Assembly: GCA_021292105.1 (NCBI GenBank)
Contig: CM037861.1
Coordinates: 52,478,920-52,542,919, forward strand
DNA length: 64,000 nt
From: Anadara kagoshimensis
Taxonomy: Eukaryota; Mollusca; Bivalvia; Arcoida; Arcidae
Direction: 5' to 3'
Shown: positions 19,728 through 61,774 of the stretch, piece by piece
Layout: every line of letters begins with the position of its first letter
How positions within the stretch are numbered: position 1 is the stretch's first letter
Notes under the pieces: generated by a model
Databases searched by the model: none
What the model was told of the DNA's origin: nothing
What the model saw: the letters and a program-made list of their open reading frames with translations, nothing else
Position numbers and translations under genes: made by a program

Positions 19728-19970
19728 AACAGGAAAGAGAAAAAATGCAGGGTCAGACCGGGGATTGAACCCGACCCTGGGAAGTGGCCGACCAAAAGGT
19801 TGGTCCCAGGGTGGAACCTTGTTTCGATTCAAGGGAGCTGAATCGAAAAAAAGGAAGGGAGGAATGTAGCGGTCTGGGTAGCTCAGTGCTAGAGCACCTG
19901 CCTATAGTGCGGGAGGTCCCGGGTTCGATCCCCAGTCCAACCCTGCATTTTTCTCTTTCCCGTTACACAT
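19728..19970. mobile_element. Fold-back element with tRNA-like arms
   Basis: The left arm tgtaacaggaaagagaaaa is the inverse of the right arm ttttctctttcccgttaca. The match continues inward through tgcagggt and the B-box-like ttcgatccccagtcc, giving arms of about 46 bp. The tRNA-like module (19871-19942) has an A box (tagctcagtgc) and B box (gggttcgatcccc). The left arm repeats the B-box part in reverse. Confidence 0.7.
19871..19942 (+). other. tRNA-like sequence inside fold-back element
   Basis: A cloverleaf can be drawn: D stem GCTC/GAGC, anticodon stem CCTGC/GCGGG with loop CTATAGT, and a T arm around GGTTCGATCCC. The acceptor stem pairs imperfectly (about 5 of 7). It is more likely a relic in a mobile element than a working tRNA gene. 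Confidence 0.45.
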
Positions 19971-24973: not shown

Positions 24974-25509
24974 CTACACTGGGGTGGTTCGTCTAAATGT
25001 ATTTTCCGATGGAACAGGCATATGATCACGTTGCATGTCACGTGGTTGATGTGTGTCTACTGTCGTTGATATTGTATTTCTTGATACTTCTCTAGGAAAA
25101 GTATAATTTGATAATTCATGTGATGTTGTTTCTGAAATAGGGGTATATGTAAAATAACTCTCAGACCTGCTTAATGATGGATCTCTAGAGCGTTCTCGCG
25201 ACTGTGATCGATCACGTGATTGTGACGGAGATTTTCTATAACGCCACCTATTGCTTCTATCATTTGCTTCAGTTTTTAACATTTTTTGCACTTTCTTTCG
25301 TTGTGAATGCTTATATCGTGTAATGTATAGATACACAGAGAATACTCCCGACAATTCAGTCAAGGCAAATGAACACACTGCCATCATGAAAGAAGAACCG
25401 TACCAATATTCAAATTTAGGATCTTCACCTTGGTTTCCTTTCCCTTTATTGCCCACTTCTTCTGTTATGCTGCCTATATATAGTATAATACCGACAAGTG
25501 TACAGAGAC
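24974..25509 (-). CDS. TARP last exon: TM3 end, TM4, tail with PDZ ligand
   Basis: Acceptor ctacttgcag, 536 nt, stop TAG at 24976-24974. It encodes LCTLVGIILYIG (TM3), a Gly/Lys loop, then YWYGSSFMMAVCSFALTEL and GVFSVYLYITRYK (TM4; vertebrate [20 protein letters not shown]). The tail holds a YRKSPSQSRDRSQSRERSRD block, then Ser/Thr-rich sequence and FRRTTPV. The Arg/Ser block is where vertebrate stargazin is phosphorylated to control lipid binding. I saw no clear polyadenylation signal on the minus strand below the stop. Confidence 0.95.
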
Positions 25510-33659: not shown

Positions 33660-33886
33660 TCATCTATCTGTGTTTAGATATCGCAGTCATTAGGCTGAGG
33701 TAACACATTTATCAGGTTCTCTATGTCTGTTTAGATATCTCAGTCATTAGGCTGAGGTAACACTTTTAGCAGGTTCTCTATCTGTGTTGAGATATCTCAG
33801 TCATTAGGCTGAGGTAACACATTTAGTAGGTTCTCTATCTTTGTTGAGATATCTCAGTCATTAGGCTGAAGTAAGACATTTAGCAG

Positions 33887-33959
<73 letters not shown>

Positions 33960-34301
33960 AGATATCTCAGTCATTAGGCTGAGGTAACGCATTTAGCAGG
34001 TTCTCTATCTCTGTTGAGATATTTCAGTCATTAGGCTGAGGTAACGCATTTAGCAGGTTCTCTATCTCTGTTGAGATATCTCAGTCATTAGGCTGAGGTA
34101 ACGCATTTAGCAGGTTCTCTATCTCTGTTGAGATATCTCAGTCATTAGACTGAGGTAACACATTTAGCAGGTGCTCTCTCTCTTTCTCTCTCTCTCTCTC
34201 TCTGTTTAAATATCTCAGTCATTAGGCTGAGGTAACACATTTAGCAGGTTCTCTATTTCTGTTGAGATATCTCAGTCATTAGGCTGAGGTAAGACATTTA
34301 G

Positions 34302-34359
<58 letters not shown>

Positions 34360-34530
34360 AGATATCTCAGTCATTAGGCTGAGGTAACACATTTAGCAGG
34401 TTCTCTATTTCTGTTGAGATATCTCAGTCATTAGGCTGAGGTAACACATTTAGCAGGTTCTCTATTTCTGTTGAGATATCTCAGTCATTAGGCTGAGGTA
34501 ACACATTTAGCAGGTTTTCTATATAACTTC
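33660..34530. repeat. Composite array: 57-bp units interrupted by (CT)n runs
   Basis: Thirteen copies of a 57-bp unit containing gatatctcagtcattaggct start at 33677, 33734, 33791, 33848, 33961, 34018, 34075, 34132, 34208, 34265, 34361, 34418 and 34475. Three (CT)n tracts split them into blocks of 4, 4, 2 and 3. Each unit holds an imperfect palindrome (ctcagtcattaggctgag). Confidence 0.9.
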
Positions 34531-43839: not shown

Positions 43840-45015
43840 TGTTATCTGTAAGTTATATATATGTCTATGTAACATCCTAATAAGATACAAGATAAAATCA
43901 TTTTCGTGTACAAACAATTTCAATAACGCACATAACACAGCGAAATGTTACCACTATTGATTCGTATGGTCTCGGCCAAGTAGAACAGAATACACATCCC
44001 ATTTCTACTTAATTCAAGATTAATCTTATTTTATGAGCGGTATATCAAGGACTGTTATATGAAGCGCATGAACGACTTACTCTTGTAAATTTATCGTAAA
44101 ACAAATTCATCAGTTTAATACCTTCATATTAAAAGCGAATATATATCATTTCCCCTTAATTTGCGTAGAGTTAGGGACTTGGAGAAGTTTAAGTGTTTAA
44201 ATCAACGCGAAGTATATCCATCTTTATCCAATATTTCATCTTTACCAGTCGATGTTGTATATCGTAATCACGCACTGATAATGTCTGATACCGGTACAAG
44301 GACAGCGTGAGTCGTAGGTTGTTAAAAGGGTTCAGGGTTAAAGGATCGAATTTTTTCATTTGTACAAAATAATATTTGTTAGCTTCATTGCTTATTTAAA
44401 AACTATTATGATAGAGGATTGGTTTTTCTCCAAGCAAGTCATCCACTGACCAATCTCTTTATCATTGAAGAAGTTCCCTGAATATTTCATTTGAAATGAA
44501 AAAGTCTATTGTCAGAGTCACTGTGATTTGTGACAGTAAATTATGCACATTTTTTCATAAAAAATCAAATAAACGTGAATAAAAATTTTGGTTGTATTGT
44601 TTTCTTATTCGAATCTTGATAGTAGATGTTACCGAGCTGTCAAGAGGTACAACGAAACACACTGTGAATAAAGCCTTAAAAAAAGATTGCAACAATTCTA
44701 AGTTGTGTCCGTCCTTTTTACCAAATTCAAATAACTATTTTGGCGTAAACTATACATGTGCGTGAAGCCTTAAAATCCTTAGAAAGAACAACAGAAAAGA
44801 TTAAGAAAAAAATTGAAAAAGCAAAAAAAAAAAAAAAAACACACAAAAATACACATTTACGTTTAAATAGAACAATAGGGTATATATCAATGAACAACCT
44901 GTTAATCATTAACGTGGGCTTCATAAATTAAATATTTTTTGCGAAAAAAGATGATGCTGATCAAATAAGAATAATTTCATGTGATTTAATAATGATCCGC
45001 GAAATAGTTTGAATT
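43840..45015. other. Nothing recognised
   Basis: AT-rich, with an A-run at 44826-44840 and a single short region of moderate GC at 44200-44340. No frame with coding character. Confidence 0.45.
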
Positions 45016-45017
45016 AT

Positions 45018-45582
45018 TGAGTTATACCTCAATTATGACGCAAATGAAAGGTTATATTTGAAGCTGTATGGCAAACCTGATGACTTCAAATTTTCTATTG
45101 CCAACTTCCCTTTTCTATGCAGCAATATTTCTGCTTCTGCTTATGATGTATTTGTTTTATAATTAATAAGCTATGGTAGAATTTGTTCCCACTACGGGAA
45201 CTTTATACAACGAAACAAACCGCTCACAGATAAATTGTTGACACTGGGATATTGCATGCCTAAGCTTATTAAGGCACTCAAAAGTTTTATGGCCGTCATC
45301 ACAATATTGTTGATAAGTATGATGTCTATGTATTCAAAATGACCCGAATGTTTGTATATTTGACATCTCATAGTTCCATGTTCCTTTCATTTCTAATTTT
45401 GATTACGCACATGGCGGTTGTAACTAGCTAAACAGAGGTGCTTATCCTTCCGGATCACTCGGCATACTTTTCCTTGTGGAAGCTCGCGTGTTTAACCTAA
45501 TTAGCCAGCTTCAAAGTTTGGTTTACTTTGCTTTGGAGTTTTGGTTTGGACATTGATTGGTATGTTTGTTTTTTATTAATCC
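45018..45582 (+). repeat. Rep-A, one of the two longest copies
   Basis: Runs from gttatacctcaattatgacg through tatttgaagctgtatggcaa, ttcccactacgggaacttta, tatggccgtcatcacaatat, tgcttatccttccggatcac to tgattggtatgtttgttttt. With the copy at 61775 it defines a family length of at least about 550 bp. Confidence 0.8.
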
Positions 45583-45832
45583 TCCATGCATAAAATAAGT
45601 AACACAATAAAAGGGTCTGGCGGTGTTTGATTGAACGAAATGAAAATTGCAATTTTAATTGTTTTTTACAAGTTTTATTTCAGCAATACAGAACAAAGCA
45701 AGCACAACTTTAACTCTAAACACAGACGTCAAGTTTAATGCGTGACCTTGCAAGTGAAAGTGTTTTTAAACTTGAACATATGATAGTCCATTCCGCAGTG
45801 TGATTAATGCTAAAACTGTTTATACTTTTGCA

Positions 45833-45875
45833 GCACAAGAGGTCGTTTTGTAATAAAATTGCTCATCTGTAGTGC
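45833..45875 (-). ncRNA. Hammerhead ribozyme-like motif, copy E (decayed)
   Basis: Minus strand. Stem I 5' GCACTA, core CAGATGAG (CTGATGAG with T4 changed), stem II loop, CAAAAC in place of CGAAAC, then GACCTC and TTGTGC as the stem I partner. Two core positions are changed, so it should not cleave. It shares flanks (ttttggtccgagcacta) with the other copies. Confidence 0.6.
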
Positions 45876-45889
45876 TCGGACCAAAATTG

Positions 45890-47237
45890 TGAAAATTTAA
45901 TTTTTTTTAAGAAATAGATGGACGAAAATGTATTTATGACCATTTTAAACAAAAAAGCATGCCATTTTCTAATGGCCTAAAATAGGGACATACGTGCATT
46001 ACGTCATGTCTGATAGATGCAGATCAAATATATAGGTTGTAGTTTTTCAGTTAACGTAAACTGTTGTCCATTTATCGTAAAATGCGGGTTACATAATCTA
46101 TGCTCTAACTGGATTCCCTGTCTTCATTTATTCTTTGAAATAAATCAAGCCCTTTCTCTAGTGACTTAAAAAATTAATCTGCGCATTAAGATTTATTAAA
46201 CCAGACAAATGAAAGCAATTAGAGATAAACTGTTTCAAGAGAAAAATATTTTCGCACCAAACAGCAAATTTTTATGTAATATTTCAGTTTAAATACTGGA
46301 ATCTATATAAGGAATCCAATTTGTGTATAAAAACCTGTGAAGACTTTCCACTGCCTCTGCTAGCATTTAAAGCGAGACTCCATTATAATGTTACTTTATT
46401 GATCGCTAGATCCGATGATTGCGTAGGTCGGTTCTTTTATGGGTTGTATTTGCGTAATAACCTTCAGGTCAGGAATACTCCTACAACGAAACTGCTACAA
46501 AAATAGAATATCTTAATGATTGCGCTGATTACACAGCTTATTTTAGACACTATATCAAACTAGCTTTCTAATTTTGGCCTCATTGCAAGCCGTGATTTAA
46601 ATGCCTTGCGGAGACATTTCCTGCGAGTAGACAGGCATTACATACTTCTACAATACATCCCTTCTTTAACGATATATTGAAAAAAATTGGTCAAATCATT
46701 GAAAGACATCTACTGAATAAATAAAAATATCTCTATTAAGTTTACACTAGATGTAATTTTATTTAGTAGAATGTTTATTGCGCTAGCAGTAAGTCACACA
46801 GTGTGTTGTGCCAGAATAACTAAATCATTGTGATTCTTATTTAATTTTCTGGAACGATACAAATAAATCTCACAACAGACAATATAATATTGTGATTGAT
46901 AATTGTTACCAATACCACAGTGGCCAATCAGATAGTCTGTTACATAAATCAGAACCTCCAAGCAGCCAATCATTAAATACTATTCATACAATTGACTAGT
47001 AAGAAGGTTAGTCGGCCAATCTGTCACATTCAACAGACCTCCAAGTCATTTAGGTCCAGCCAATAATATGTCCTTGCGCAAGTTCAGAAAACTATTAAGT
47101 TGGTTAATGGTTATGTACAAATGACATATGGAAGTCAAATAGTCTGTTTCAAACTTAACCAATGTAAAATAATCTTTTATTTATCTATGGAATGAAACAC
47201 ATTGGCACCGTACGACTGTCTATCGATTTGAGTAACA
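45890..47237. other. Nothing recognised apart from weak short repeats
   Basis: AT-rich. Several ccaatca blocks between 46920 and 47060 hint at an old degenerate repeat. A 61-codon frame at 46321 has no coding support. Confidence 0.4.
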
Positions 47238-47358
47238 ATCAAAAGCAAACATACTAATCCATATCCGAATCACAATCCAGAAGGAAAGTAAAGAGATTGG
47301 GACTGACAAGTCAGGTTAGACACGTAAACTTCCACCAGGGAAGTGAGACCAGATGCTT
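47238..47358 (-). repeat. Rep-A fragment
   Basis: Terminal half only: actaatccatatccgaatca, acttccaccagggaagtgag. The core is lost beyond agatgcttca. Confidence 0.65.
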
Positions 47359-47537
47359 CAAATGAGAAGAAATTTGTATCTGAAAAAGAGTGTTTGGCAC
47401 GGTAAACGCAACTAAGAACATGAGACACAAATAAATTAAAGAAACGGAAAAAAGACAAGAAAGAATTGTCAAGAACACAATTGCGACATAGATTATGAAA
47501 TTCCGCATTTGGACAAAATTTGTTATAACTATTACGT

Positions 47538-47795
47538 TGTGGTTATAGTATTATTAGAGGGCCGCAACCATTCCACATATTTAACAACCAATGTCAATCA
47601 TTTTAAAACAATCAGGCTTACAAAACTATCTCAACCTGTATATGGTTGAATGGTGTATCTTGTTTTTGTGGTTATAGTATTATTAGAGGGCCCGCAACCA
47701 TTCCACATATTTAACAACCAATGTCCAAAAATCATTTTGAAACAACAAGATCTAACGAAACTATCTCAACCTGTATATGGTTGAATGGCGAATCT
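47538..47795. repeat. 129-bp tandem duplication
   Basis: Two units with ttgtggttatagtattatta and ttccacatatttaacaacca begin 129 bp apart (47541 and 47670 as reference points) and differ at scattered positions and small gaps. Confidence 0.85.
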
Positions 47796-48029
47796 TTGTT
47801 TCGAAGAAGAATATGTTATATCGTATTTATAACAAGCACATCAGACAAATCAGAGGAATATAGATACCACGGTGGTGGGTTCTACGAGTATTGCCAAGGA
47901 AAGTTTACAAATGTAAACCGAATGTCTTGTAAGATCCAGATCGGGAAAACAAAACCACGCTCATCCGATTTGTTTGCTTCGACAAATAACTTTAAATGTT
48001 TTGAGGGAAAGAAATGCACTTGGATGTAG
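47721..48029 (+). other. Unassigned open frame (102 codons)
   Basis: ATG at 47721, stop TAG at 48027-48029. It is Ser/Thr/Cys-rich with YRYHGGGFYEYCQGKF and NFKCFEGKKCTW near the end. It begins inside the 129-bp duplication and is less AT-rich than its surroundings. I recognise no family and see no splice partners; it may be a gene fragment or chance. Confidence 0.15.
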
Positions 48030-48650
48030 ACAAAGCTAAAGCAATAAATCATAGGAAAGCAGATAACAGCCGTAATACAATGCTAATTGTATTCACATCC
48101 ATGGAAACATAAAATCCTTGCAAGAACCACCAAAAATAAGCAGCAACAAAGTTAAAACAGAAAAAGGTCGTAAAATGTTTGTAAAATCAAAACTAAAGTT
48201 ATGTATATGACTGTTTCTATTTGAATTGAGATGTGTCCCAGTTTTCAAAATGTTTTTAATAATGCTATGAGATAGTGATATGAACATGGATTAGTATATT
48301 TTACGGTTAATTAATTATCGAATAGTGTGTTATTCGGGTTTGTTACTTTGAATGCTTTCAATGTTCTGGCATATTTTGTATGCAAATCTTGGAGTTAAGT
48401 TCATCAGCTTATTGAATAAAATGCATGGAAAATGGTTCTAGTATATAAAAAACCAACCTACATTGGTTAATAACAAAGTCCAAGGTGTGTGATATCGTTG
48501 ACTTTGAGTCCATCTTAAAGTACACGAATTAAAAAACTTAACATATTTCTCCAAAACGATATGCATCTTGCCTCTTGTCTTGTTAAAATTTGACAACTTC
48601 ATCAAAATAACAAATATATACTTTCGCAACTTCGCCATCGCGTTTTCGAT

Positions 48651-48652
<2 letters not shown>

Positions 48653-48687
<35 letters not shown>
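48653..48687. repeat. (CT)n microsatellite
   Basis: About 17 CT units just before the 84-bp duplication. Confidence 0.95.
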
Positions 48688-48689
<2 letters not shown>

Positions 48690-48693
48690 TTAG

Positions 48694-48861
48694 GTTGCTG
48701 GAGCGACGGTGCGATAATTCAAAACTTGGACCTAATCGGGTACCGTACGCATCGGTTGAATAACATTACATCATCAGGTTGCTGGAGCGACGGTGCGATA
48801 ATTCAAAACTTGGTCCTAATAGGGCACCATATGTATCGGTTGAATAACATTACATAAAGAG
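48694..48861. repeat. 84-bp tandem duplication
   Basis: Two copies starting gttgctggagcgacggtgcg (48694 and 48778) differ at only a handful of positions. Less AT-rich than the flanks. Confidence 0.9.
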
Positions 48862-48869
48862 TTTTAAGG

Positions 48870-49690
48870 AAAATCAATATAAAAAGATTTGTTCTGATGA
48901 ATGAATTCTCTAAATCTATCGTGAGATATCGATCAGCATGAAACACAAAACACAATGCTCTCGTAAAACACATTTACCACATCAAAGACAAAATTTTATA
49001 TATGTTTTACTCAATGTGCATTAGTTAGATTACAGGATCATAATGATTCTTCAGATATGCAGCATCAAGCTGCATTATTACGTTGCATCGTAAAATGTCC
49101 TCTTTTAGATAACATATTATACAATATTTGCTTATGAAACTGGGAACACAATAAAGCAAGTCGTATTTAGGTTAATTTCTTAAATTCATTTAAATGTGGT
49201 TCATAATTATGTAACTCGTTTGTTATGGGTGTTCAGATAACGTGGAAATCTCTCCATCATCAATCACTCTGTAATTTTATTATTATTTTTTAAAATGTTA
49301 GGGAAAATGGACACTGTATTTACAAAATTTTTAACAGATATCGTAACATTACTTTTTTACTATTATCAAATTGTGTCTCAGAGCACATTATTCTACATTT
49401 AAGATTTGAGTGGTTGATTAATATGGTGTAATACTGACCACAATCATATAGACAAAGACGACAGACCAGTTCAACAATTTCCTTCTTAAGGTCAATATAT
49501 TATACGCATACATTTATAACATTCAGAACGCTCCAAACACGATGAGATCTTTTTTCTTTTCTTTTTTGTAGAGAGATTAAATAATCACAAAACATTTACT
49601 TATCAAGCTGAAGACATTTGTATATAATTTGCATTATTTTGACTTAAGCAATCAACCATTTAAGTTCTTTTATTTTGTAGAGAATGTATT
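48870..49690. other. Nothing recognised
   Basis: AT-rich with no repeat or frame I can support. Confidence 0.45.
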
Positions 49691-49697
49691 GCTGCGA

Positions 49698-49812
49698 ATC
49701 AAAAACAAACATACTAATCCATGACCGAATCACAATCCAGAAGCAAAGTAAAAACTTTGGAACTGAAAAGTCAGGTTAGACACGTGGACTTCCACCAGGG
49801 AAGTGAGGCTTA
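49698..49812 (-). repeat. Rep-A fragment abutting an opposite copy
   Basis: Reverse terminal half (actaatccatgaccgaatca to accagggaagtgaggctt), directly followed by a forward Rep-A stretch. Confidence 0.7.
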
Positions 49813-49814
49813 GA

Positions 49815-50345
49815 GGTTGTTCCCAGTACGGCGACTTTATACAACGAAGCAAGCTGCTTACAAATAAAGTGTTGACTCTGTGATATTGCAAGCCTAGACT
49901 AATTGAGACCCATAAAAAGCTTTTTAGCCGCCATCACAATATTGATAAGTATGATGTTTTCTGTACCCAAATTATATATTTGACGTCACATGCTACATTC
50001 ATTCTAAAATTTGATTAAAGTTTTTACTTTGCTTCTTAAATGTGATTCGGATATCGATTAATATGTCTGTTTTTGATTACACACATGACAGACGTAACTA
50101 ATAAACAGAAGATGTTTACCCTTCCGGAGCACACGGTCTTACGTCCCTGGTGGAAGTTCAAGTGTTTACTTAATTTGCCTCTTTTTTGTAGTTTTTACTT
50201 GGTTTTGGGATTGTGGTTTGGGCATGGATTGGTAGGTTTGTTTTTAATTTGGTTTTGAGGTTGTGATTTGGACAAGAATTAGCAGGTTTGTTTTCTTTGT
50301 TTTGGGGTTGTGATTTGGACATGGATTGGTAGATTTGTTTTCAAT
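49815..50345 (+). repeat. Rep-A composite (forward)
   Basis: Starts ttcccagtacggcgacttta, passes agccgccatcacaatattga, has an early terminal part (tttttactttgcttcttaaa), then a second core tgtttacccttccggagcac, and ends with three near-copies of ggttttgggattgtggtttg. It looks like one copy inserted into or recombined with another. Confidence 0.7.
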
Positions 50346-50549
50346 TATATACTAACTATTAAGATCTATATTGTTTTTATGAAAATGAAAATGTAAACAA
50401 AAATTAATTCGTTTATCTAATACCGTGGCATAACAGTCTTATTACTATAATGGTATGCATCCACTTTTGACTCGAATTAAGCATAACTAAATTAACCATA
50501 TATTGACATATGTAAGATATATATAAACGAGTCATAATTAGTTTGATAT

Positions 50550-50905
50550 ACTCTATACAACGAATCAAAGTGCTTACAAAAAAATTGACGACGCAGTGAT
50601 ATGGCTAGCCTAGGTTTATCAAGACCTCTGAACGTTTTATGACCGTCATTATTTTGTCTCTGTATCCAAAATTACCCTGGATATATTTGACGTGCATTCA
50701 GTTTCATGTTCCTTTCAATCTCAAGTTTGATTACACACGTGGCAGGAGTAGCTAGCTAAACAGAAGATGCTTTCCGAAGCACCCAACCTCGCTTTCCTGG
50801 TGGAAGCCTATGAAATTACTTAATTTGTCAGTTTCAAAGTTTTTACTTTGGTTTGGGATTGTAGTTTGGGCATGTATTACAATGTAGTATGTTTGGCTTG
50901 ATTTA
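50550..50905 (+). repeat. Rep-A copy, long
   Basis: From ctctatacaacgaatcaaag through ttttatgaccgtcattattt and the shortened core gatgctttccgaagcaccca to gggattgtagtttgggcatg. Confidence 0.7.
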
Positions 50906-51272
50906 GGTTTTTAAATTATTTTACCTTCAATGTGACTGACACAATTAACAAATGTGACTTTTGCATTATAAGGATGCATTTTCATAAGACGGTCAAACTC
51001 CCTTAATTTATTAAGAAAACACACTACTTTTTATAGGGTGTAATGCATAACGATTTTCAACATTTTATATTTTTCATTCGATTTTACCAATATTTGGAAA
51101 GTATTCTTTAAAAATCACATTTTCCTGATTCAGTATTTCTTTTATATTTTTCCGTTAGGGTATGTTAATGTACGACTTTTTTAATTTTTTTTTCATTTTT
51201 ACCAATATTTGGAAAACGTTCTTCAAAAAACACAATTCCCTGTTTAAATATTTTTTATACTTATCCCCCGAG

Positions 51273-51620
51273 TTAGATCACGATATAATGCATGTAGTTT
51301 TTGATGATTTTTGAACAAAGATAATTCATTTTCATTTTTAATGAATGATTGTTAAAATACATATTAAGGAACTTTAATTTCAAAAAGCGTAACATCTTTT
51401 TTTGGATACCCCTGTTTTGTTCCAAAATTTGAAAATTACAATACTCAAACACTACTTGTTGCAAGAACGTAATTTTCACACGGTTCAATGGGATCGTAGT
51501 TGTAAAATTCATATCAATTTGTAACCAGTGATTCATTTTTAAACGTTGCAGTTTATATTCATCTGATATTCCAGTCTCGTTGAAGTATCGTTCGCCAATT
51601 ATTTCCAACATATGAACCAA
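51273..51620 (-). other. Unassigned open frame (about 115 codons)
   Basis: Opens at a TTG at 51620; the first ATG is at 51611. It contains GISDEYKLQRLKMNHWLQID followed by a PLNRVKITF stretch. The spacing of NHW and PLN is faintly like the E.HWI..L.T..P.GLN blocks of some retroelement proteins, but the match is too weak to name. The last part is Lys/Asn/Phe-rich, as expected for chance in AT-rich DNA. Confidence 0.2.
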
Positions 51621-51804
51621 TGGTGGAAATCCTTAATGGTTTTAATAATTATGATGATCCCATTAAATAAAAACTATTTTAAAAATATATATTTACAACA
51701 AGTAATTATTATCAATTTTCATAAAATAAGGACCGTGGTTTTATAATAGACAAGACGGGAGAGATAATAAAAGTCATCTTTACAAAAAAAAAAACGATAT
51801 CTCC

Positions 51805-52160
51805 TGCCTATCAAAAACAAACATACCTATCCATGTCCAAACCAAAGTCACACTTTGAAAATGGCAAATTACAATAAAACTTTCCACCAAGGAAGTGAAC
51901 AGGGTGCTCCAGAAGGATAGGTAACAACTCTTTAGAGCTAGCCATGTGTGTTATCAAAATTGGGAGTGAAAGGAACATTTGACTGTAGGATGTCAAATAT
52001 AAGGTAATTATAGATACAGAGACACCATACATATCAACATGATGACAGCCATATTAACATTTGAGAGCTCTGATAAACCTATGCTTCCAATATCCTTGCG
52101 TCAATGTCATTTCTAAGCAGCTTGCGTCTTGGTATAAAGTTCCTGTAGTGAGAATAAACA
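51805..52160 (-). repeat. Rep-A copy, long
   Basis: Reverse orientation from caaacatacctatccatgtc through gtgctccagaaggataggta and catgatgacagccatattaa to cttggtataaagttcctgta. The plus-strand hammerhead copy follows about 70 bp further on. Confidence 0.75.
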
Positions 52161-52229
52161 CTACCGTGCATTTTGGTCCTTGGATTTCTTTTCAACACAT
52201 TGGAAAACGTTTTGGTTTCATTTGGTCCA

Positions 52230-52275
52230 TGCACTACTTATGAGAAATTGTATTCCGAAACGACCGTCTAGTGCA
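52230..52275 (+). ncRNA. Hammerhead ribozyme-like motif, copy A
   Basis: Plus strand, 46 nt. Stem I TGCACTA and TAGTGCA pair perfectly (7 bp). Between them lie CTTATGAG (consensus CTGATGAG, G5 changed), a stem II hairpin with ATTGTATT, CGAAAC, loop GACC and the cleavage triplet GTC just before TAGTGCA. The layout is a complete type I hammerhead; the G5 change probably disables this copy. Confidence 0.75.
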
Positions 52276-52689
52276 TTAAAATTTAGACTGGTAAACTATG
52301 TAATTGAAACAAATATTAAAATATGTACACCATAACCAGGTATATATATGACAAAAGCTTCGGATTTCACACAGTAATAATTAATTGAATTTCGACTGTT
52401 CTGTTTGTGTTTGATCAGAATCAGTCCGTTTCTGAGTAAGAGCATCAAATTCATCATGAAAGCCACAAATTGAATAGTTTGTCCAATACTATATGATTGA
52501 TATGAAAATAAAGCAGGGAAATACTGATGCTTAACCAAGCCAGTTGGTTATCTGGAAAAAAAACAAGTGAGTCGACAGACATTCCATATAAATTGTTAAG
52601 ATCAAATGCCAAATCATGAATGTAATGCAAAAGAAGCTTCTTCAGACATGTCAACGTCAATAACTAGCGTAATAGTTTTGATGTGAGTG

Positions 52690-53300
52690 TTATGTACAGT
52701 AAAAGCATGACTAGCTACAACTTTCAGCTATATTAATTATGCACAGTAATTCAAGTAACGTAATTGCATATTATACCAGTTTTGATTTTACAACACTAGA
52801 CGGCCATTTCGGAATACAATTCCTCACCAGTAGTGCTGGGTCCAAATTTGTTAAACAAATTTTTTTTCAAGATCTTGAAAAGATACTTAAATGACCAAAA
52901 TATACTTGTAAGATATTAATTCAGTTTGTGATCAAAATTATAAAGAGTAATAATTTTAGTATCTAGACGTACAAATATGAGAATCTGTCTCATAAAGAGT
53001 GATGATCTCTCCAGCAAGGTAAGGTATTAGTACAGTTTGTGATCAAAAGTATAAAGTGATTCTCTGCATACAACTTTTACATATTAATATAGTACAGTTC
53101 TTTTACAGGAACGAAAGATATTAGTATAGTTTGTCATCAAAAGAATAAAGAGGTTATCCACCTACAACTTTTAGCTATATTAATATTGTACAACTCTCTA
53201 TCAGTAACGTACAATAATTTGTGATAAAAACAATAATCAGTAATATTTAAATTTTCTAAGATGTACAAATATGAGAATATGGCTCATAAAGATTGATGTA
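52690..53300. repeat. Degenerate tandem region around hammerhead copy B
   Basis: Blocks such as ctacaacttttagctatatt, gtacagttcttttacagg and tttgtgatcaaaa recur at loose spacings of about 85-115 bp or multiples. Copy B lies near the left end. Confidence 0.5.
52793..52836 (-). ncRNA. Hammerhead ribozyme-like motif, copy B
   Basis: Minus strand. Stem I GCACTA with TAGTGT (one wobble), core CTGGTGAG (A6 changed), stem II GGAAT-TGT-ATTCC, CGAAAT, loop GGCC, cleavage triplet GTC. The downstream flank (aaaactggtataatatg) is shared with copies A and D. One invariant core base is altered. Confidence 0.75.
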
Positions 53301-54571
53301 TTAAACCCACTGAATAAAGTAATGATTATGTATGAAATAGAGATATTTGGAACGGCATCAAATGATGTATGTCTTATAGCAAATACACGGTACCACACAT
53401 CATTATTATGTGAAACACTATATCAATTTACATATACAACATTTCCCATTACCTAGAGATGTTGTAAAACCGAGGAAGTAAATATACTTTAGCAAATTAT
53501 AGGCTACAAAAGCAGTAAAAATCTAATAAAATTCTACAATTCTTTAAAACATTTCTGTTTTTATTGTCTATGGTTCAATCAATGTCGGTAACATAACATG
53601 TACATGTCTCAAAATTTTTACGATTCCAATATCATTAATATTTTTTATAAATATGTGTTAAAATTTCATTAAAAACTGGAGTGTTAAAACATACTCAATA
53701 GGTTCGTGTAAAATTGAATTTTATACCTTAAAATTTATACACTGGAAGCCGTGATGTAATTACACAGCTCAGAACTTAATTAATTTAATAAATGGACAGA
53801 AATCAATAAAAACGCAATGGAATGTTCAAATGAAAAACGAAAATCTAATGGTTATTAGCGGCAAACAGACTAATTTTCCTGATCAATTTCAGCGCTATTA
53901 GCTACAGACTAGTATATTCTCTGATTATTAGGTTGTAGTTGAGTATATCGTGTCTACTGTCTAAGAACTCAGAAATGCGTGCCGCTGCTGATGCTGTTAT
54001 CGACCACTCTCGTCTGCTTATAATTGCCTTTCGTGGTTGTTCTCAAAAACCTATAAACCAATGTTAGGCCATTTGCCTGAGATGGACATAAATATAAAGC
54101 ACTGGCCATTATAAGTAATAACCTGAAAATTTACCATTAAATTAGAGGTGGGCTCTACCAAAATGTATGTGATTTAAAATCCGCACAAAATATATGTTGA
54201 ATGACGATACATAAAAATACCTATCCTGGATAAAACGTTTTATGTAATTATGGCGTATGTAACATGACTTGTCCATCTATGAATTTAGGAAATGATAGAA
54301 ATATACACCAATATTAGAAGACCATTCTTTCATAAGTCTATATTCAACTTTCTCCAAATAAAAGTATACTTTTATCAGAGACTTTGAATTTACTCAATTT
54401 ACTCTCATAGTGTAGTATCTAATTATGCTTAAATATAACAGTGATTTAACTCTTCTATTGATACTGCCGCCAAAGTGGAATTCGAACCCCACAGCGACGA
54501 GGTATTAATATTAAATGCTGTTACTAACAGCAAGCGGTGCTTATATTACCAAAAGGTTTCTTTTTTAATTT
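53300..54571. other. Nothing recognised
   Basis: AT-rich; a short GC-richer segment at 53965-54030 has no gene-like structure. Confidence 0.45.
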
Positions 54572-54888
54572 TTAATATTGCAGGCCTAGGCTTATCAAGG
54601 CCATAAAAAAGTTTTATGACCGTCATCACAGTATTGTTAATAAGTATAATGTCTCTGTATCCAAACTTACACTTGAAATAGTTGACGTCCCGTAGTTCCA
54701 TGTTTAATTCATGCACAATTGTTTTAACACAGCTAGCTAGCAGGAGGTGCTTACTCTTCTTCAATGGCAGCCGTTGTCATTCCCTGGTGTTAGTAAACAT
54801 ATTTAACCTAATTTACCAGCTTCAAAAGGTGTTACTTTACTTTTGTATTGTGGTTTGGACATGTATTGGTATGTTTGTTTTTGATTGA
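54572..54888 (+). repeat. Rep-A copy, long
   Basis: From tttaatattgcaggcctagg through ttttatgaccgtcatcacag and gaggtgcttactcttcttca to ggacatgtattggtatgttt. Confidence 0.75.
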
Positions 54889-55460
54889 TGCATGTGCCAA
54901 ACATGAAAGCTTTTTTTTAAATAATTTGATAATGTGAGAAGTTCCTTTTTTAAATAATAAATAAACATTATGATATCCATTCTCTCTTGTGATATCACCA
55001 ATGTGTTAAGAGAATGTATGAACGATTAGAAATCACACAAAATACAAGACCAATCTACATAGTGCTGTTCACACATTATTTCATTTTAAATGCATAGTAG
55101 ATTTATTACGGCGTCAACCGTGGTCCTATTGTTTGAAGACACTGATGCTTAACCAAAAAGCTCAGTGAAAGTTTCAAAATATCAATAACACATAGTTTGA
55201 TTGTAGACAAATCAAATCTATTATAAAAATATTTTCTGATTTTACATAGTAACGTCTTTAACTTAATTTTCAATATTAAGTATTGATTAATGCACACGAT
55301 ACAATTGTTCGCTGATCAAATTCTAGAACTAACACACGATTCGAATTAGACAATCGAGACAAAGATACAAATAACTACGGACACGCTCCCTTGCACGGGA
55401 AGGGTTACCTGTGTTCAACGCCACTTACACCACCATATTTCTTGAGTTTTGTGTTGGTGA

Positions 55461-55890
55461 CACTTGATTCAATGTACGAATTTGGTAAAAAGTAGTAAAA
55501 ATAGGAAATGTGCTTACGCGAATTTGTAAAGGGAAAGTCCATGTTCTATCGTGAACTTGTACTGAAGACACTGTTGTTGTCTATGAAGACAATATTGTTG
55601 TGTATGAAGACATTAATTGTGTATAAGCATTTGCTTCTATAGGAAAAAGTACATTCATAACGTGAACTTGTATAGGAAAAGGAACACTTGATTCAGTGTA
55701 CGAATTTGGTAAAAATAGGAAATGTGCTTACGCGGATTTGTATAGGGAAAGTCCATGTTCTATCGTGAACTTGTACTGAAGACACTATTGTTGTGTATGA
55801 AGACACTATTGTTGTGTATGAAGACATTAATTGTGTATAAGCATTTGCTTGTATAGGAAAAAGTACACTCATAACGTGAACTCGTATAGG
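55461..55890. repeat. 224-bp duplicated leader of the minisatellite
   Basis: Two copies starting cacttgattcaatgtacgaa (55461 and 55685) contain gaagacactattgttgtgta sub-repeats and one early 34-bp-like unit each. A fragment (gaagacatttattgtatatt) reappears after the array at 57155. Confidence 0.8.
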
Positions 55891-57095
55891 AAAAGGAACA
55901 TGTCCTAACGTGAACTTGTATTGGAAAAGGGCATGTCCTTACGTGAACTTGTACAGGAATAGTGCATGTCCTAACGTGAACTTGTATAGGAAAAGTGTAT
56001 GCCCTAACGTGAACGTGTAATAAAGGAAAAGTGCATGTTCTAACGTGAACTTGTATAAGAAAAGTGCATGTCTTAACCTTAACGTCTATAGGAAAAAGTG
56101 CATGTCCTAACGTAAACTTGTGTAGGAAAAAGGGGATGTTCTAACGTGAACTTGTGTAGGAAAAAGTGCATGTCCTAACGTGAACTTGTGTAGGAAAAAG
56201 TGCATGTCCTAACGTGAACTTGTGTAGGAAAAAGTGCATGTCCTAACGTGAACTTATATCGGAATAGTGCATGTCCTAACGTGAACTTGTGTAGGAAAAA
56301 GTGCATGTCCTAACGTGAACTTATATCGAAATAGTGCATGTCCTAACGTGAACTTATATCGGAATAGTGCATGTCCTAACGTGAACTTGTGTAGGAAAAA
56401 GTGCATGTCCTAACGTGAACTTGTGTAGGAAAAAGTGCATGTCCTAACGTGAACTTATATCGGAATAGTGCATGTCCTAACGTGAACTTGTGTAGGAAAA
56501 AGTGCATGTTCTAACGTGAACTTGTGTAGGAAAAAGTGCATGTCCTAACGTGAACTTGTGTAGAAAAAACGTGCATGTCCTAATGTGAACTTATATCGGA
56601 ATAGTGCTTGTCCTAACGTGAACTTGTGTAGGAATAAGTGCATGTCCTAACGTGAACTTGTATAGGAAAAAGTGCATGTCCTAACGTGAACTTATATCGG
56701 AATAGTGCATGTCCTAACGTGAACTTGTGTAGGAAAAAGTGCATGTCCTAACGTGAACTTATATCGAAATAGTGCATGTCCTAACGTGAACTTGTGTAGG
56801 AATAAGTGCATGTCCTAACGTGAACTTGTGTAGAAAAAAGTTCATGTCCTAACGTGAACTTATATCGGAATAGTGCATGTCCTAACGTGAACTTGTGTAG
56901 GAAAAAGTGCATGTCCTAACGTGAACTTATATCGGAATAGTGCATGTCCTAACGTGAACTTGTGTAGGAATAAGTGCATGTCCTAACGTGAACTTGTGTA
57001 GGAAAAAGTGCATGTCCTAACGTGAACTTATATCGGAATATTGCATGTCCTAACACGAACTTGTATAGGAAAAGTGTATGCCCTAACGTAAACTA
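55880..57095. repeat. 34-bp minisatellite with two interleaved unit types
   Basis: About 35 head-to-tail units of gtgcatgtcctaacgtgaac plus a variable tail. Tail type 1 is ttgtgtaggaaaaa (34-bp unit); type 2 is ttatatcggaata (33-bp unit). From about 56230 the types follow an AB/AAB order. The first units are diverged, the central ones nearly identical, and the last ones decay again. Confidence 0.93.
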
Positions 57096-57189
57096 TATGT
57101 TCTAATTATCTGTAATGATGTACTGAAGAGTAATACAAGACACTATTGCTGTGTATGAAGACATTTATTGTATATTAACATTTGCTGAT

Positions 57190-58107
57190 TAAGACTAATG
57201 TTCCTTCAGCAATGGAAGGTAATGACTCTGTTGTTTACTCTGAACTTCAATCAATGCATGTCAATAAAAGATAGTACTAATCTACAATCACTTGTACATA
57301 CAAAGGAGTGTGTAAATGCAAATGCTTTGAGTAAATCATCTTAAATAATATTTGAGGATAATTAAGTTCGTCCATATGTATATACATAAGGGACCCAAAT
57401 TGTGTTGGAATTTTAAATTAAGCTAGCTTATACCCTTGATGTTCCAAATTAAATCATTATGGATGCATTTCCCTATTGTATGTTTTTGTTCAAAGTGAAA
57501 ATGTGTGTCCCAGTGAATATAATCCCACTTTCTCTAGATGGTTATTTTTGAATAAATTAAGACTTTTTATCTTTCGCTCCATGACGTTTTTATAAATTAA
57601 TGAAATCTATTTATTAAGAAATTTTCAATGGAATAAAATGTAAAGAAAACTCGTGTTTTCACATAGCCAATAGAAGTAAGAGATCCGTACAATTGTTTTG
57701 TAAAGGTACACATTGTACGCTGATTATGACATGTTAAAAACTGTTTTATCAATTTAGCAACAATTATGTTTGTATATATAGCGCTGAACACATGTTTCTG
57801 TTTAACTTCACAGAGTAATTTATATATTTTGTTTCTAAGATCATTGAAGGCAACCGAATTAAAATCTTTCGAATAGTCATTGATTTTGGTGTTAATCTGG
57901 CTTTAACTAAATAAAACCACAAAATAGCCTACAACCTTATTGTTTTATTCCTGAAAAAACTCTATTCGCATGACCTGTACAGCTTGAAAATACTCTAATG
58001 ACCAATTATAAAGAAGTATAATCTATGAGAAAAACGGTCAATAAATATTATACAAATCCTACCATCTTTCTTAGAATAGTTAAATACGTTCAACTGCGGA
58101 TTGCATA
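57190..58107. other. Nothing recognised
   Basis: AT-rich with no coding-like frame or repeat. Confidence 0.45.
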
Positions 58108-58215
58108 AAGTAAACAAACATACTGCTGCTTGTAAAATCACAATCCCAAAAGCGAAGTAAAAACTTTGAAAACTGACAATTAAGTTAAACACTTGAACTT
58201 CCGCCAAAAAGGTGA
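58108..58215 (-). repeat. Rep-A fragment
   Basis: Terminal half: aaaatcacaatcccaaaagc, aaaactttgaaaactgacaa, gaacttccgcc. Confidence 0.65.
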
Positions 58216-58362
58216 TACACCGAAAGAGTAATAAACTGCTTAAACATGTGATCTTAGAGTAAATATTTAGTTAAATTTACGCTTGACGTATGATAGTGTA
58301 ATAGATAAAAGATAATTATAGAAATAATCACTACAGTCAAGTTCGGTTATCTCTATAAATAA

Positions 58363-58935
58363 AAAACAAACATACTAATCCATGTATAAATCACAATCCA
58401 AAAACAAAGTAGAAACTGACAAGTAAGGTTAGAGACGTGAACTTCCACCAGGGAAGTGAGACCGGGTGCTCCTATAAAATGTGTATATACTAGTGACTTC
58501 GAGCTTGGATAATGAATATGAATTAAGCAAGTATAAAGAAATGTGAATGACGAATCAAAACGGAAAGTGAAGCCTACAATGTACCCAAACTCAAAATATA
58601 CATGTATATAAGTAAGGAATTGCAGAAGATATAAACCCCTAGTAATCAGAAAGAAACATACTATCCATGTCCGAGTCACAATCAAGAAGCAAAGTATAAA
58701 ACTTTGGAACTTACACGTCAGGTTAGACACGTGAACATTAACCAGAGAAATGAGGTCGGGTGCTCCTATAAAATGAGTATATACTAGTTTCAGATTGGAG
58801 CATGGATAGTGAATATGAATTAAGCAAGTATAAAGAAATGTGGATGACGAATCAAAAAGTAAAGTGAACAGTTCGGGTACAGTGAATCCTACAATGTACC
58901 CAAACTCAAAATATACATGCATATAAGTAAGGAAT
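58363..58935 (-). repeat. Rep-A fragment plus unrelated tail, tandemly duplicated (285 bp)
   Basis: Each unit starts with a reverse Rep-A terminal half (ccatgt at 58380 and 58665), stops at gggtgctcctataaaatg, and continues with a shared non-Rep-A segment (gaatatgaattaagcaagta, cctacaatgtacccaaactc). The unit is 285 bp, a multiple of three. Confidence 0.85.
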
Positions 58936-58939
58936 AATA

Positions 58940-60120
58940 AATCACAGAAGATATAAAACCATAGTAAATATCACCAAAAGAGTCTTCGAATACGGTGATA
59001 TTTAGGTAAGAGTTCCTTTTGTACCCCCACCTGTTAAAATTTATGTAATTTCTAAAAAAAAATTTAACAGAAATGTTCAAAATTGTTTGATTCCGTCATT
59101 TTTAGGCTTATTTAGTCGAAATTAAAATTTTAATGGAGAGTACAAATGAAACTCTCCCCGAAATTTATTCAACCATGACGATTTTAGTGAATATTATTCT
59201 TTGATTGCATAATTAACTACCAGGATTGTTCAATTTATAATAACAAACAGTCATTACCACTGGTATTTCGCGATCGTAAATTGTTTCAAAAATCTGTTGT
59301 AACTATAATAAACAACCATTGTTATACTTTTTATATTAAAGATGTCATATGTGTTTTTGTTATTGTTCCAACAATAAGTGGGATGGTTTGAATTATACAA
59401 AATTACCCTATTTTGCATATAGATATTTTATTTTCGTCTACAGCTAAATTGCACAAATAAATTCTATTAATTTACGCATAATTTTAAGCACTCCTGCAAA
59501 TAGCCGTCATTCGAACTCAACTATATTGTTTTAGTTTAACTATTGGTATCGGCACACAATGAAATCTGCATACATCTGAATGAATTTGAGGACATCTAGG
59601 AATATTAAAATCTCCACGGACGATTTATCGCATAACCTTCAAGAACTGAATCTATGTCTATCTAGTGTCATTGGCTGGTAATGGAGATATACTCCCAGAT
59701 GGCATGTGCAAAAATTGAGAACTTTGACATATTTTTTTTCTAATTTTTGCATATGCCATACAATAAAGTATTCAGGGTCTGTGGGAATTTATACTTAGTA
59801 GTAATATTGGTTATAGGTAGTGTATAAAAATAACATTTGACACAATATAAGCTTTACTGTACCCTCCTTCCTTTTATCAATACCAGCATCCGGTTTCACA
59901 TAAAATGCATTGGTATTTCTGATTATGGAATGAGGTAATAACTTCTGTCATTTCGCGTATTTTCTTCTTCTTGTATGTAAAATGTATCATTTGCTTAATC
60001 TGTACTAGACGATGATTTAACATGAACGTAACTCGCCATTGTCAAATGTAATAATGACTGCTCTTATTGGCACTTTGCTTGAGTTACCTATGCATTACGT
60101 TCTTTATCGTATGCGTAGTA
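58940..60120. other. Nothing recognised
   Basis: AT-rich; a weak inverted pair tggcatgtgcaaaaattgag / ctaatttttgcatatgccat at 59699-59760 forms a small stem. Confidence 0.45.
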
Positions 60121-60121
60121 T

Positions 60122-60300
60122 TTTCGTAGATGCAGGTGTAGCTAGGTAACCAGGTGGTGCTTTCTCTCCAGGAGCACGCGGCCTCACTTCCTTGGTGGAA
60201 GTTCACGTGTCTTACCTGACTTGTCAGTTCCAAAGTTTTTACTTTGCTTCTGGATTGTGATTCGGATATGGATTAGAATGTTTGTTTTTGATCATACTAG
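60122..60300 (+). repeat. Rep-A copy
   Basis: Core gtgctttctctccaggagca, then cttccttggtggaagttcac and ctggattgtgattcggatat to gtttgtttttgatc. Hammerhead copy C follows about 140 bp on. Confidence 0.75.
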
Positions 60301-60441
60301 AGGTTTTGCTATACAATAATTTAACATGAACTTTAGGTGGAAATCGTCATATAAAATAATTACTATTTCCTTATCGCATTTTGCTTTAGCTATCCATGCG
60401 TTATGTTCTTGTATTATTACTTCACTTGTTTAAATTTTGCA

Positions 60442-60485
60442 GTAATAAACGGGCGTTTCGGAATAAAATTCATCATCAGTAGTGC
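60442..60485 (-). ncRNA. Hammerhead ribozyme-like motif, copy C (intact core)
   Basis: Minus strand. Stem I 5' GCACTA, intact core CTGATGA, stem II GAAT-TTT-ATTC, intact GAAA, then a two-pair stem III closed over GCCC and a GTT cleavage triplet. The 3' side of stem I (TATTAC) no longer pairs well, so cleavage would be weak at best. Confidence 0.7.
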
Positions 60486-60627
60486 TCAGACCAAAATTGT
60501 AAAAAATTCAAAAATTTGAAAAAGATGTAAAAATGTGAAAAATAGAAGGGTCAAAAGGTATTTCACATTTAAGACAATACTTTGAACGATTAAGTTTATT
60601 ACATATTATACCTTTTTCACTATTGCA

Positions 60628-60670
60628 GCACTGGGCGGTCATTAAGAATACAATTCCTCTTCAATAGTAC
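60628..60670 (-). ncRNA. Hammerhead ribozyme-like motif, copy D (decayed)
   Basis: Minus strand. GTACTA, TTGAAGAG (core damaged), stem II GGAAT-TGT-ATTC, TTAAT for CGAAA, then GACCGCC and CAGTGC. It is recognisable by position and by the flanks it shares with copies A, B and E. It lies 186 bp from copy C in the same orientation. Confidence 0.55.
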
Positions 60671-60933
60671 TTAGAACAAAATTATGAAACCAAAACTTTT
60701 TTCCAAGATGCTGAAAAGATTACAAAAGGACCAAGATATAGTTTAACAAATTTAGCTAAGGGAATACTTTGCATGAAGGAGTATACCTTAGTTTTTGAGG
60801 AAATTTGAATTTTTATACAAGCAGCAAATTTCGACAATGGTATTTTTCTGACAATAATACACAATTATTGCCAACTGAGTTTGTGATATCCTATACGTAG
60901 TGTTTACGTGGCTTATACTAGACAATAACTTAT

Positions 60934-61216
60934 ATCGGCAAACAACGTTAACCTGTCCGCTTGACCTTTAATTAATATATTATTTATAAGTACATTTATG
61001 CACATTGACCACAGATGTTTTCTCGTTTACATACTGAGAACAATAACCATATGTATTAAGTATACATTACAATTTATTGTGAATCCTAACTACTGTATAA
61101 GAAGAAACATTCGCGAAAATTTCCTACCGATAATATTTATTCTTATACAGTATATCAATATACCTGAATATACCTAATGAGAGGTCAAACGGGTAGGTCA
61201 ATGTTGTTTGCCAATA
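60934..61216. mobile_element. AGGTCA-rich MITE, long copy
   Basis: Left atcggcaaacaacgttaacc and cttgacctttaatt pair with right gagaggtcaaacgggtaggt and caatgttgtttgccaat. About 283 bp with palindromic AT-rich interior. Confidence 0.65.
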
Positions 61217-61219
61217 CAA

Positions 61220-61774
61220 AACTTTAATACGTTTGTACAATCAAGCATTAATAAAATCATATTTCAATCGCAAGGTAATTACAATAAAATAAGAAGAACA
61301 TTTTAATTTCCTGTGTTTAGTGTACATCTTGAATCACGATATTCCTATCTAGGAATTAATACCGTCTAATATCAAGTAACATCAAACGTTTGTAAATACT
61401 GCGAAATAACTAATTTAGATTAAAAACAGTTATCAAAGACAAAATCATACAAAAGGAAGTATCATGGTTTCACATACATCATGGTTTTACTATAAACTTA
61501 TAAATTCTAGGTATTTTGTAATAATTTTAAAGAGTAAACAATATTTTCAAATTATTACTTATTTTTATGTGCACCTTGTGTATCTTTGTTTTATTAAATA
61601 AATACGAATACAAAAAAACACTTTTTTGATGTGTTATTTTGGTATATATTTATCTGATAAACAGTCAAAAGTAGCATATCTTTCTATTTGACACTTTTGT
61701 CAGGACAAATAACAAAAATACAAACACGCCACCGTTTGTGAATTATCCCTACATATCTACTTATATTTATATTA
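61220..61774. other. Nothing recognised
   Basis: AT-rich with no structure that I can support. Confidence 0.45.

What the first reader, a model, noticed from the sequence alone, without database searches (positions are those of the whole stretch)
45833..60670. A dispersed family of hammerhead ribozyme motifs
Five loci (45833-45875 -, 52230-52275 +, 52793-52836 -, 60442-60485 -, 60628-60670 -) share one layout: GCACTA, CTGATGAG, a short stem II hairpin, CGAAAC, a four-base loop, GTC, then TAGTGC. This is the type I hammerhead: stem I closed by GCACTA/TAGTGC, a two-pair stem III, and cleavage after GTC. The consensus is intact although each copy has damage (A: G5 to U; B: A6 to G; C: stem I partner lost; D and E: several). 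Changes differ between copies, so the ancestor probably was an active ribozyme. Flanks such as ttttggtcc on one side and ggtataatatg on the other extend the homology well beyond the motif.
Basis: partly seen in the sequence, partly recalled or inferred. Interest (0 to 1): 0.82.

Follow-up and report, generated by a model that had tools for sequence, protein, structure and literature searches.

The report
Decayed retrozyme copies with hammerhead ribozymes
The five motifs are worn-out copies of a tiny mobile element carrying a self-cutting RNA, present in thousands of copies in this mussel-like animal's genome; the kind is known, but how its copies end gives a fresh clue to how such elements jump.

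Summary
All five loci are homologous and match a covariance model built only from genomic copies (5 of 5, E 3.6e-21 to 1.6e-11). None of the five is an intact ribozyme.

They are relics of a family with 3,785 exact matches to stem I, core and GTC of a type I hammerhead in the animal's own 1.1 Gb genome (1,878 + 1,907; reversed-pattern control 0). The full repeat is a 339-nt, 34% GC, non-coding unit that also occurs head to tail (five units, about 99% identity). That is the anatomy of the metazoan "retrozymes" described from mussel, coral and axolotl (PMC7229834): a new member of a known kind.

What I did not meet in the papers read is the insertion anatomy. Of 76 sampled insertions, 66 have their 3' end in the same 11-nt stretch, about 38 nt beyond the cleavage site. 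Their 5' ends are scattered, and 20 of 76 exceed one unit. This fits reverse transcription starting at a fixed internal site on a template unbroken at the cleavage site: a circle, or uncut multimeric RNA. Penelope-like elements start internally in a similar way (PMC11167929), but no partner was identified. Self-cleavage and circular RNA are inferred, not shown.

The parts
45811..45906 (-). Retrozyme relic A: unit positions 233-329, hammerhead at 45833-45875; U4 to A, GAAA damaged, one base of GTC lost
52170..52305 (+). Retrozyme relic B: unit positions 199-339, ends at the family's fixed 3' end (...TATGTAATT); hammerhead 52231-52274, G5 to U; expected cleavage after 52268
52762..52919 (-). Retrozyme relic C: unit positions 182-339, ends at the fixed 3' end; hammerhead 52793-52836, A6 to G
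60429..60598 (-). Retrozyme relic D: unit positions 151-320; hammerhead 60442-60485 keeps the CTGATGA and GAAA core, stem I partner broken (4 of 6 pairs)
60598..60892 (-). Retrozyme relic E: unit positions 43-338, the longest piece in the window; hammerhead 60628-60670 badly damaged; abuts D head to tail

Best explanation
The five motifs are decayed, 5'-truncated insertions of a metazoan non-LTR retrozyme: a 339-nt non-coding retroelement with a type I hammerhead. Likely cycle: genomic copies are transcribed; the hammerhead cuts tandem RNA after GTC; a host ligase closes the monomer into a circle; a reverse transcriptase supplied by another element starts at a fixed site about 38 nt downstream of the cut site, reads backwards through the hammerhead, sometimes more than once round, and stops at scattered places. 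That leaves copies with one fixed 3' end, ragged 5' ends and occasional head-to-tail multimers. Shown here: homology, genomic copies with intact stem I and core, 339-nt unit, tandem arrays, clustered 3' ends, scattered 5' ends, copies that read through the cleavage site. Inferred: self-cleavage, circularisation, the identity of the reverse transcriptase.
For: Genome: 3,785 exact matches to the stem I / core / GTC layout, reversed-pattern control 0. Structure of an intact copy (read): inner stem I GCACTA/TAGTGC; an internal loop; outer stem I AATTTTG/TAAAATT; stem II GGAAT/ATTCC; a 2-pair stem III; CTGATGA, GAAA and GTC in place. RF00163 matches it over 1-45 of 45 at 28.1 bits, E 1.8e-5. A model from 21 genomic copies finds 5 of 5 window copies. 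Unit 339 nt, GC 0.34, head-to-tail array of 5. 66 of 76 sampled insertions end within one 11-nt stretch, against at most 10 of 76 five-prime ends in any 11-nt stretch; 20 of 76 are longer than a unit; 21 of 76 run back past the unit start, 0 stop within 5 nt of a single full unit, 1 starts within 5 nt of the cleavage site. With two more flank-sharing copies dropped, 64 of 74. Of 18 insertions with a repeated part, 14 have five or more comparators: in 14 of 14 the repeated parts are more alike than the mean of other insertions, and they rank first (ties counted) in 6 of 14 against 0.24 expected. Published mussel retrozymes: about 5,000 type I hammerheads, 350-390-bp repeats, circular RNAs, self-cleavage (PMC7229834).
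Against: No cleavage or RNA data. No compensatory changes: 0 double-changed cells in inner stem I, II and III, and outer stem I 7 against 5.6 by shuffle. Rfam gathering score not reached; 0 hammerhead hits among 9 matches in 20 loci. The circular fold is no more stable than shuffles (-59.0 against -60.5, z 0.27), unlike the 'highly self-paired' published circles. Ten of 76 insertions end elsewhere. Ranking is not first in 8 of 14, and in array L044 (only 2 comparators) the own copy is the less similar one. Target-site duplications are weak.
Confidence: 0.85

Rival explanations
1. Same family, but the reverse-transcription template is uncut multimeric transcript of tandem arrays rather than a circle. 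The hammerhead is then a by-stander or works later. This is the situation reported in vitro for the Penelope-like element PAc.
For: A fixed internal start on long uncut RNA gives the same 3' end, the same ragged 5' ends and multimers. [quoted passage not shown] Array L044 mixes two kinds of unit, and its repeated part is less similar to itself than to two other insertions (0.914 against 0.923).
Against: Units within one insertion resemble each other more than other insertions on average (14 of 14 with enough comparators), as expected from one monomer copied repeatedly. Published mussel retrozyme RNA is mostly circular (PMC7229834).
Confidence: 0.35
2. [quoted passage not shown]
For: Penelope-like elements carry type I hammerheads, occur in tandem, and start reverse transcription downstream of the hammerhead (PMC11167929). 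GIY-YIG matches are present in this genome (50 matches, 150 of 248 candidates scored), and L091 encodes a 762-aa frame with RT and GIY-YIG domains.
Against: The unit is 339 nt and its longest stop-free stretch on a trimer is 83 codons. In 6 fetched loci (7 of the 50 listed GIY-YIG places) this hammerhead was not found in the same orientation (one opposite-strand hit in L093). 4 of 4 short-loop loci fetched were relics of the retrozyme. The other 43 places were not read.
Confidence: 0.05
3. An ordinary satellite or SINE-like repeat whose hammerhead resemblance has no function; arrays spread by unequal crossing-over.
For: Stems show no covariation; arrays exist; the window copies are all decayed.
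Against: Unequal crossing-over does not give dispersed copies with a fixed 3' end and ragged 5' ends. Core positions (CTGATGA, GAAA) are 90-100% conserved against 72-85% at the ten outermost 5' flank positions, though much of that comes from selecting exact motifs.
Confidence: 0.07
4. A chance cluster of hammerhead-like sequences in the window.
For: The bare core pattern alone is close to chance in 64 kb. Rfam reports no hammerhead in the window at gathering, nor at E up to 10 in 45001-61500.
Against: Flank homology, model hits and 3,785 exact genomic matches against a control of 0.
Confidence: 0.01

Closest known systems
Metazoan non-LTR retrozymes, above all those of the mussel Mytilus galloprovincialis (PMC7229834)
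   Same: Type I hammerhead, thousands of copies (about 5,000 reported there, 3,785 exact pattern matches here), low-GC non-coding repeat of a few hundred nt, dimers to multimers, a mollusc host. The best named protein match of a window exon is Mytilus californianus, 77%.
   Different: 339-nt unit against 350-390 bp reported. Fixed 3' end and 5' truncation were not mentioned in the parts read. Sequences could not be compared, because the supplement and the published sequences were not seen. About half the helix III 8-mers are self-complementary (55 of 104); that paper describes palindromic tetraloops for one amphibian family.
Penelope-like elements with hammerheads, such as PAc of Anolis (PMC11167929)
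   Same: Insertions end at a fixed internal reverse-transcription start ('tail') downstream of a hammerhead; tandem organisation
   Different: No substantial reading frame here. PAc starts 111-118 bp into its ORF, with the cut site 26 bp into it; here the end lies about 38 nt past the cut site. PAc cleaves AT-rich sites; here the first 10 nt of flank are only slightly richer in AT (0.71-0.73) than sequence beyond 30 nt (0.67-0.69).
Rfam RF00163 Hammerhead_1
   Same: End-to-end match 1-45 of 45, 28.1 bits
   Different: Below the gathering score of 34; window copies 17.7 bits (B) or none at E up to 1 (C)
Plant LTR retrozymes (PMC4918200, seen in search listings only)
   Same: Hammerhead-bearing non-autonomous retroelement
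   Different: According to PMC7229834 these have type III hammerheads, about 700 bp between them, LTRs and GC over 55%; here the hammerhead is type I, the unit 339 nt and GC 0.34

Membership tests
Type I hammerhead ribozyme (structural class) | Conserved core CUGAUGA, GAAA, and a UH cleavage site, with three helices and open stem I | tested here: met
   3,785 exact genomic matches to stem I, core and GTC (stem II was left free in the pattern); structure. The five window copies are all damaged.
Type I hammerhead ribozyme (structural class) | Compensatory changes in the stems (supporting, not defining) | tested here: not met
   0 double-changed cells in inner stem I, II, III over 104 copies; outer stem I 7 against shuffle mean 5.6. 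One family, mostly chosen for intact stem I and core, so little power; it lowers the structural claim slightly.
Type I hammerhead ribozyme (structural class) | Self-cleavage | not testable with these tools
   Needs in vitro transcription.
Rfam RF00163 at its curated cut-off | Score of at least 34 bits | tested here: not met
   28.1 bits best; window slices 17.7 (B) or none (C). Not filed under RF00163.
Metazoan non-LTR retrozyme | Type I hammerhead inside tandem repeats of about 150-450 bp | tested here: met
   339-nt unit, array of 5, further array L069 with 3 exact hammerheads in 1,200 nt
Metazoan non-LTR retrozyme | Low GC, no protein coding | tested here: met
   GC 0.34; longest stop-free stretch 83 codons on a trimer, minus strand
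Metazoan non-LTR retrozyme | No LTR, primer binding site or polypurine tract | not tested
   No LTR-like ends were seen in the boundary maps, but PBS and PPT were not scanned for
Metazoan non-LTR retrozyme | Target-site duplications, when present, longer than 4 bp | tested here: inconclusive
   73 insertions (flank duplicates not yet dropped): shared stretches of 8 nt or more in 5 against permutation mean 0.9 (max 4); of 6 or more in 18 against 12.3 (max 22); of 10 or more in 0. Weak, no clear class.
Metazoan non-LTR retrozyme | Linear and circular monomer RNA in tissue | not testable with these tools
   No RNA data held
Penelope-like element | RT plus GIY-YIG reading frame in the same element | tested here: not met
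   No such frame in the unit. 6 loci read, covering 7 of 50 listed GIY-YIG places, none with this hammerhead in the same orientation.

The most novel reading that the evidence does not exclude
Animal retrozymes insert by target-primed rolling reverse transcription of their ribozyme-made RNA circle. A foreign reverse transcriptase, probably of the Penelope type, starts at one fixed internal site about 38 nt past the cleavage site, next to a GC-rich hairpin region (unit positions 1-65) that lies downstream of the start only on a circle or multimer, and runs round until it falls off. The ribozyme is then what makes a usable template out of a 339-nt unit.
Probability: 0.4. Interest if true: 0.7.

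Novelty: new member of a known kind. Interest (0 to 1): 0.45.

Why it matters
[quoted passage not shown] A fixed 3' end downstream of the cut site, with ragged 5' ends that run back through the cleavage site, argues against the linear self-cleaved monomer as template for these copies and resembles the internal start known from a Penelope-like element. With thousands of copies in one assembly, the question becomes testable by counting.

Tried and rejected
Rejected: chance motif. Rejected as a description of the unit: the D-E spacing of 186 nt is not a monomer length. E ends and D begins at the same base (60598), but D starts at unit position 151, so the pair is a deletion product or two insertions. 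Rejected on what was read: a separate minimal-hammerhead family. The pattern with a 0-2 nt loop gives 442 + 484 matches (control 1 + 0), but many of the listed places look like the main family read in a shifted register (not counted), and 4 of 4 loci fetched are retrozyme relics.

Led nowhere: RF00163 over the whole genome, 73 of 112,716 candidates scored, nothing rang in the 14 controls either; Rfam on 20 loci, 0 hammerheads among 9 matches; a scan of viral contigs for a near-exact piece, 0 hits; GIY-YIG loci as partner, 6 loci covering 7 of 50 places. Planned but did not complete: genome counts of the tail alone (ACTGGTATAATATGTAATT) with and without the hammerhead, meant to expose an autonomous partner sharing the tail; the machine was busy on every attempt.

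Limits and corrections: the insertions come from the first 27.3 Mb of one contig and were picked by an exact hammerhead, so 3' ends upstream of it could not be seen. Among 30 neighbouring pieces without an exact hammerhead, 13 also end in the same 11-nt stretch and 10 more at unit positions 321-331. Of 120 pieces, 90 have an exact hammerhead; dropped before the count of 76 were 2 second views of the same insertion, 2 pieces within 60 nt of a locus end (also second views) and 10 with duplicated flanks. My first count (66 of 74; 64 of 72) had wrongly left out two insertions, L009 and the minus-strand one of L039, both ending elsewhere (unit position 309); one search puts them back. Searches were made with those two left out and were not rerun.
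Full report
What is in the window. The five motifs exist at the stated coordinates. They are homologous to each other beyond the motif, and each aligns to one 339-nt genomic unit: A 45906-45811 (unit 233-329, 77%), B 52170-52305 (199-339, 80%), C 52919-52762 (182-339, 82%), D 60598-60429 (151-320, 70%), E 60892-60598 (43-338, 82%). Rfam finds no hammerhead in the window at gathering and none among 7 matches at E up to 10 in 45001-61500. On short slices B scores 17.7 bits against RF00163 and C has no match at E up to 1; A, D and E were not sliced. A covariance model built from 21 genomic copies, none from the window, finds exactly these five at E up to 1, with E 3.6e-21 to 1.6e-11. No window copy is intact.

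The family in the genome. The window lies in a 1.115 Gb assembly of 36 contigs. The best named match to a window exon is a calcium-channel gamma subunit of Mytilus californianus at 77% (one exon only), so the animal is probably a bivalve close to mussels; the species is not known to me. An exact pattern for stem I, core and GTC, with stem II left free, matches 1,878 + 1,907 times, and its reversed control 0 + 0. An intact copy matches RF00163 end to end at 28.1 bits, E 1.8e-5, below the gathering score of 34. In array L002, one of the four copies listed scores 28.1 bits and three 17.9.

Ribozyme anatomy, read from the sequence. Inner stem I is GCACTA/TAGTGC. An internal loop (GTCCAA and TG) separates it from an outer stem I, AATTTTG/TAAAATT. 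Stem II is GGAAT/ATTCC with a TGT loop. Stem III has two pairs (A-U, C-G) around GGCC; the 8-mer ACGGCCGT is self-complementary, and 55 of 104 copies have a self-complementary 8-mer there. That would allow a longer helix III between two copies, as PMC7229834 and PMC6155905 describe for salamanders and newts. Stem covariation is absent in this sample.

The unit and its insertions. In L002 five units of 338-339 nt lie head to tail; GC is 0.34 and there is no substantial reading frame. I mapped pieces of the unit in loci L001-L090, minus five redundant loci: 120 pieces, of which 90 have an exact hammerhead. After dropping second views of the same insertion (4) and copies with duplicated flanks (10), 76 remain. 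Of these, 66 end within an 11-nt stretch around ...GGTATAATATGTAATT, about 38 nt past the expected cleavage site; 10 end elsewhere (unit positions 287-329). The 5' ends never exceed 10 of 76 in any 11-nt stretch. 20 of 76 are longer than one unit, up to 1,697 nt; 21 of 76 run back past unit position 1; none stops within 5 nt of a single full unit; one starts within 5 nt of the unit start (array L002) and one within 5 nt of the cleavage site. With two more flank-sharing copies dropped, the count is 64 of 74 (which corrects). A query spanning the unit's end and start gave 42 matches, not de-duplicated, of which 27 cover the junction and the hairpin.

What this means. A linear self-cleaved monomer ends at GTC, so it cannot be the template of copies that end 38 nt later and read back through the hammerhead. 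The template must be continuous across the cut site: a ligated circle or uncut multimeric RNA. Fixed 3' and ragged 5' ends are what target-primed reverse transcription leaves (established knowledge). Of 18 insertions with a repeated part, 14 have at least five comparators; in 14 of 14 the repeated parts agree better with each other than with the mean of other insertions, and rank first, ties counted, in 6 of 14 against 0.24 expected. Of the other four, L002 and L069 (one comparator each) agree, L044 (two comparators) does not, and L013 has no comparator. This leans towards one monomer being copied repeatedly but is not decisive, because homogenised source arrays would do the same and L044 mixes two unit types. 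Target-site duplications are weak, and the predicted circle is not unusually stable (z 0.27).

Known relatives. PMC7229834 (four of six parts read, including results, discussion and legends; the supplement not seen) describes mussel retrozymes with about 5,000 type I hammerheads, 350-390-bp repeats and abundant circular RNA, and proposes Penelope-like elements as partners. PMC7761336 (passages) says no motif in metazoan retrozymes reveals the partner. PMC11167929 (passages and the main-text section) shows that a Penelope-like element starts reverse transcription internally, downstream of its hammerhead, at the site where its genomic copies end, and that unprocessed RNA served as template in vitro. 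Five literature searches answered (open-licence papers only); I did not meet the fixed-end and truncation description for animal retrozymes in what I read. PMC10886601 and PMC8490949 and PMC6155905 were seen in passages only; other papers from listings only.

Partner. The genome has GIY-YIG matches (50, with 150 of 248 candidates scored). L091 encodes 762 aa with RVT_1 and GIY-YIG matches, but the model does not find this hammerhead in it. Of five further GIY-YIG loci, read over about 1.2 kb each, none has the hammerhead in the same orientation; L093 has an opposite-strand relic. So the Penelope link is by resemblance, not by a shared tail; that test did not complete.

Verdict. The kind is known (metazoan retrozyme); this is a new member. 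The insertion anatomy is the part worth following.

Noticed in passing
window 19871-19944 +: tRNA-like sequence (ARAGORN Tyr, anticodon ata; Rfam tRNA 36.8 bits) overlapping one arm of a short inverted repeat (19722-19773 against about 19920-19970): perhaps a tRNA-derived repeat rather than a gene.
   Followed up: partly
window 55848-57094: Minisatellite of about 37 copies of a 34-bp unit, beside a 214-bp repeat of about two copies at 55495-55900.
   Followed up: no
window 33663-34522: Array of a 57-bp unit, about 15 copies, broken up by long TC runs.
   Followed up: no
window 24974-25549 -: Exon of a voltage-dependent calcium channel gamma subunit (claudin superfamily; 77% to Mytilus californianus).
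   Followed up: partly
L091 1229-1876 and 4723-5360: The Penelope-like locus carries an inverted copy (648-column alignment) of its 3' part at 97% identity.
   Followed up: no
L076 and L074 (helix III): The helix III 8-mer changes from ACGGCCGT to ACAGCTGT, two changes that keep it self-complementary (2 of 104; the two loci share their 3' flank, so perhaps one event). Possibly a hint that hammerheads pair as dimers.
   Followed up: no
L057 5' end: One insertion begins exactly at TAGTGC, the first base after the expected ribozyme cut, as if the template there was cleaved RNA; one case in 76 proves nothing.
   Followed up: no
unit positions 1-65 (for example L002 1577-1641): A GC-rich hairpin-forming stretch directly downstream of the fixed end in arrays; a candidate binding site for the reverse transcriptase (fold).
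   Followed up: partly
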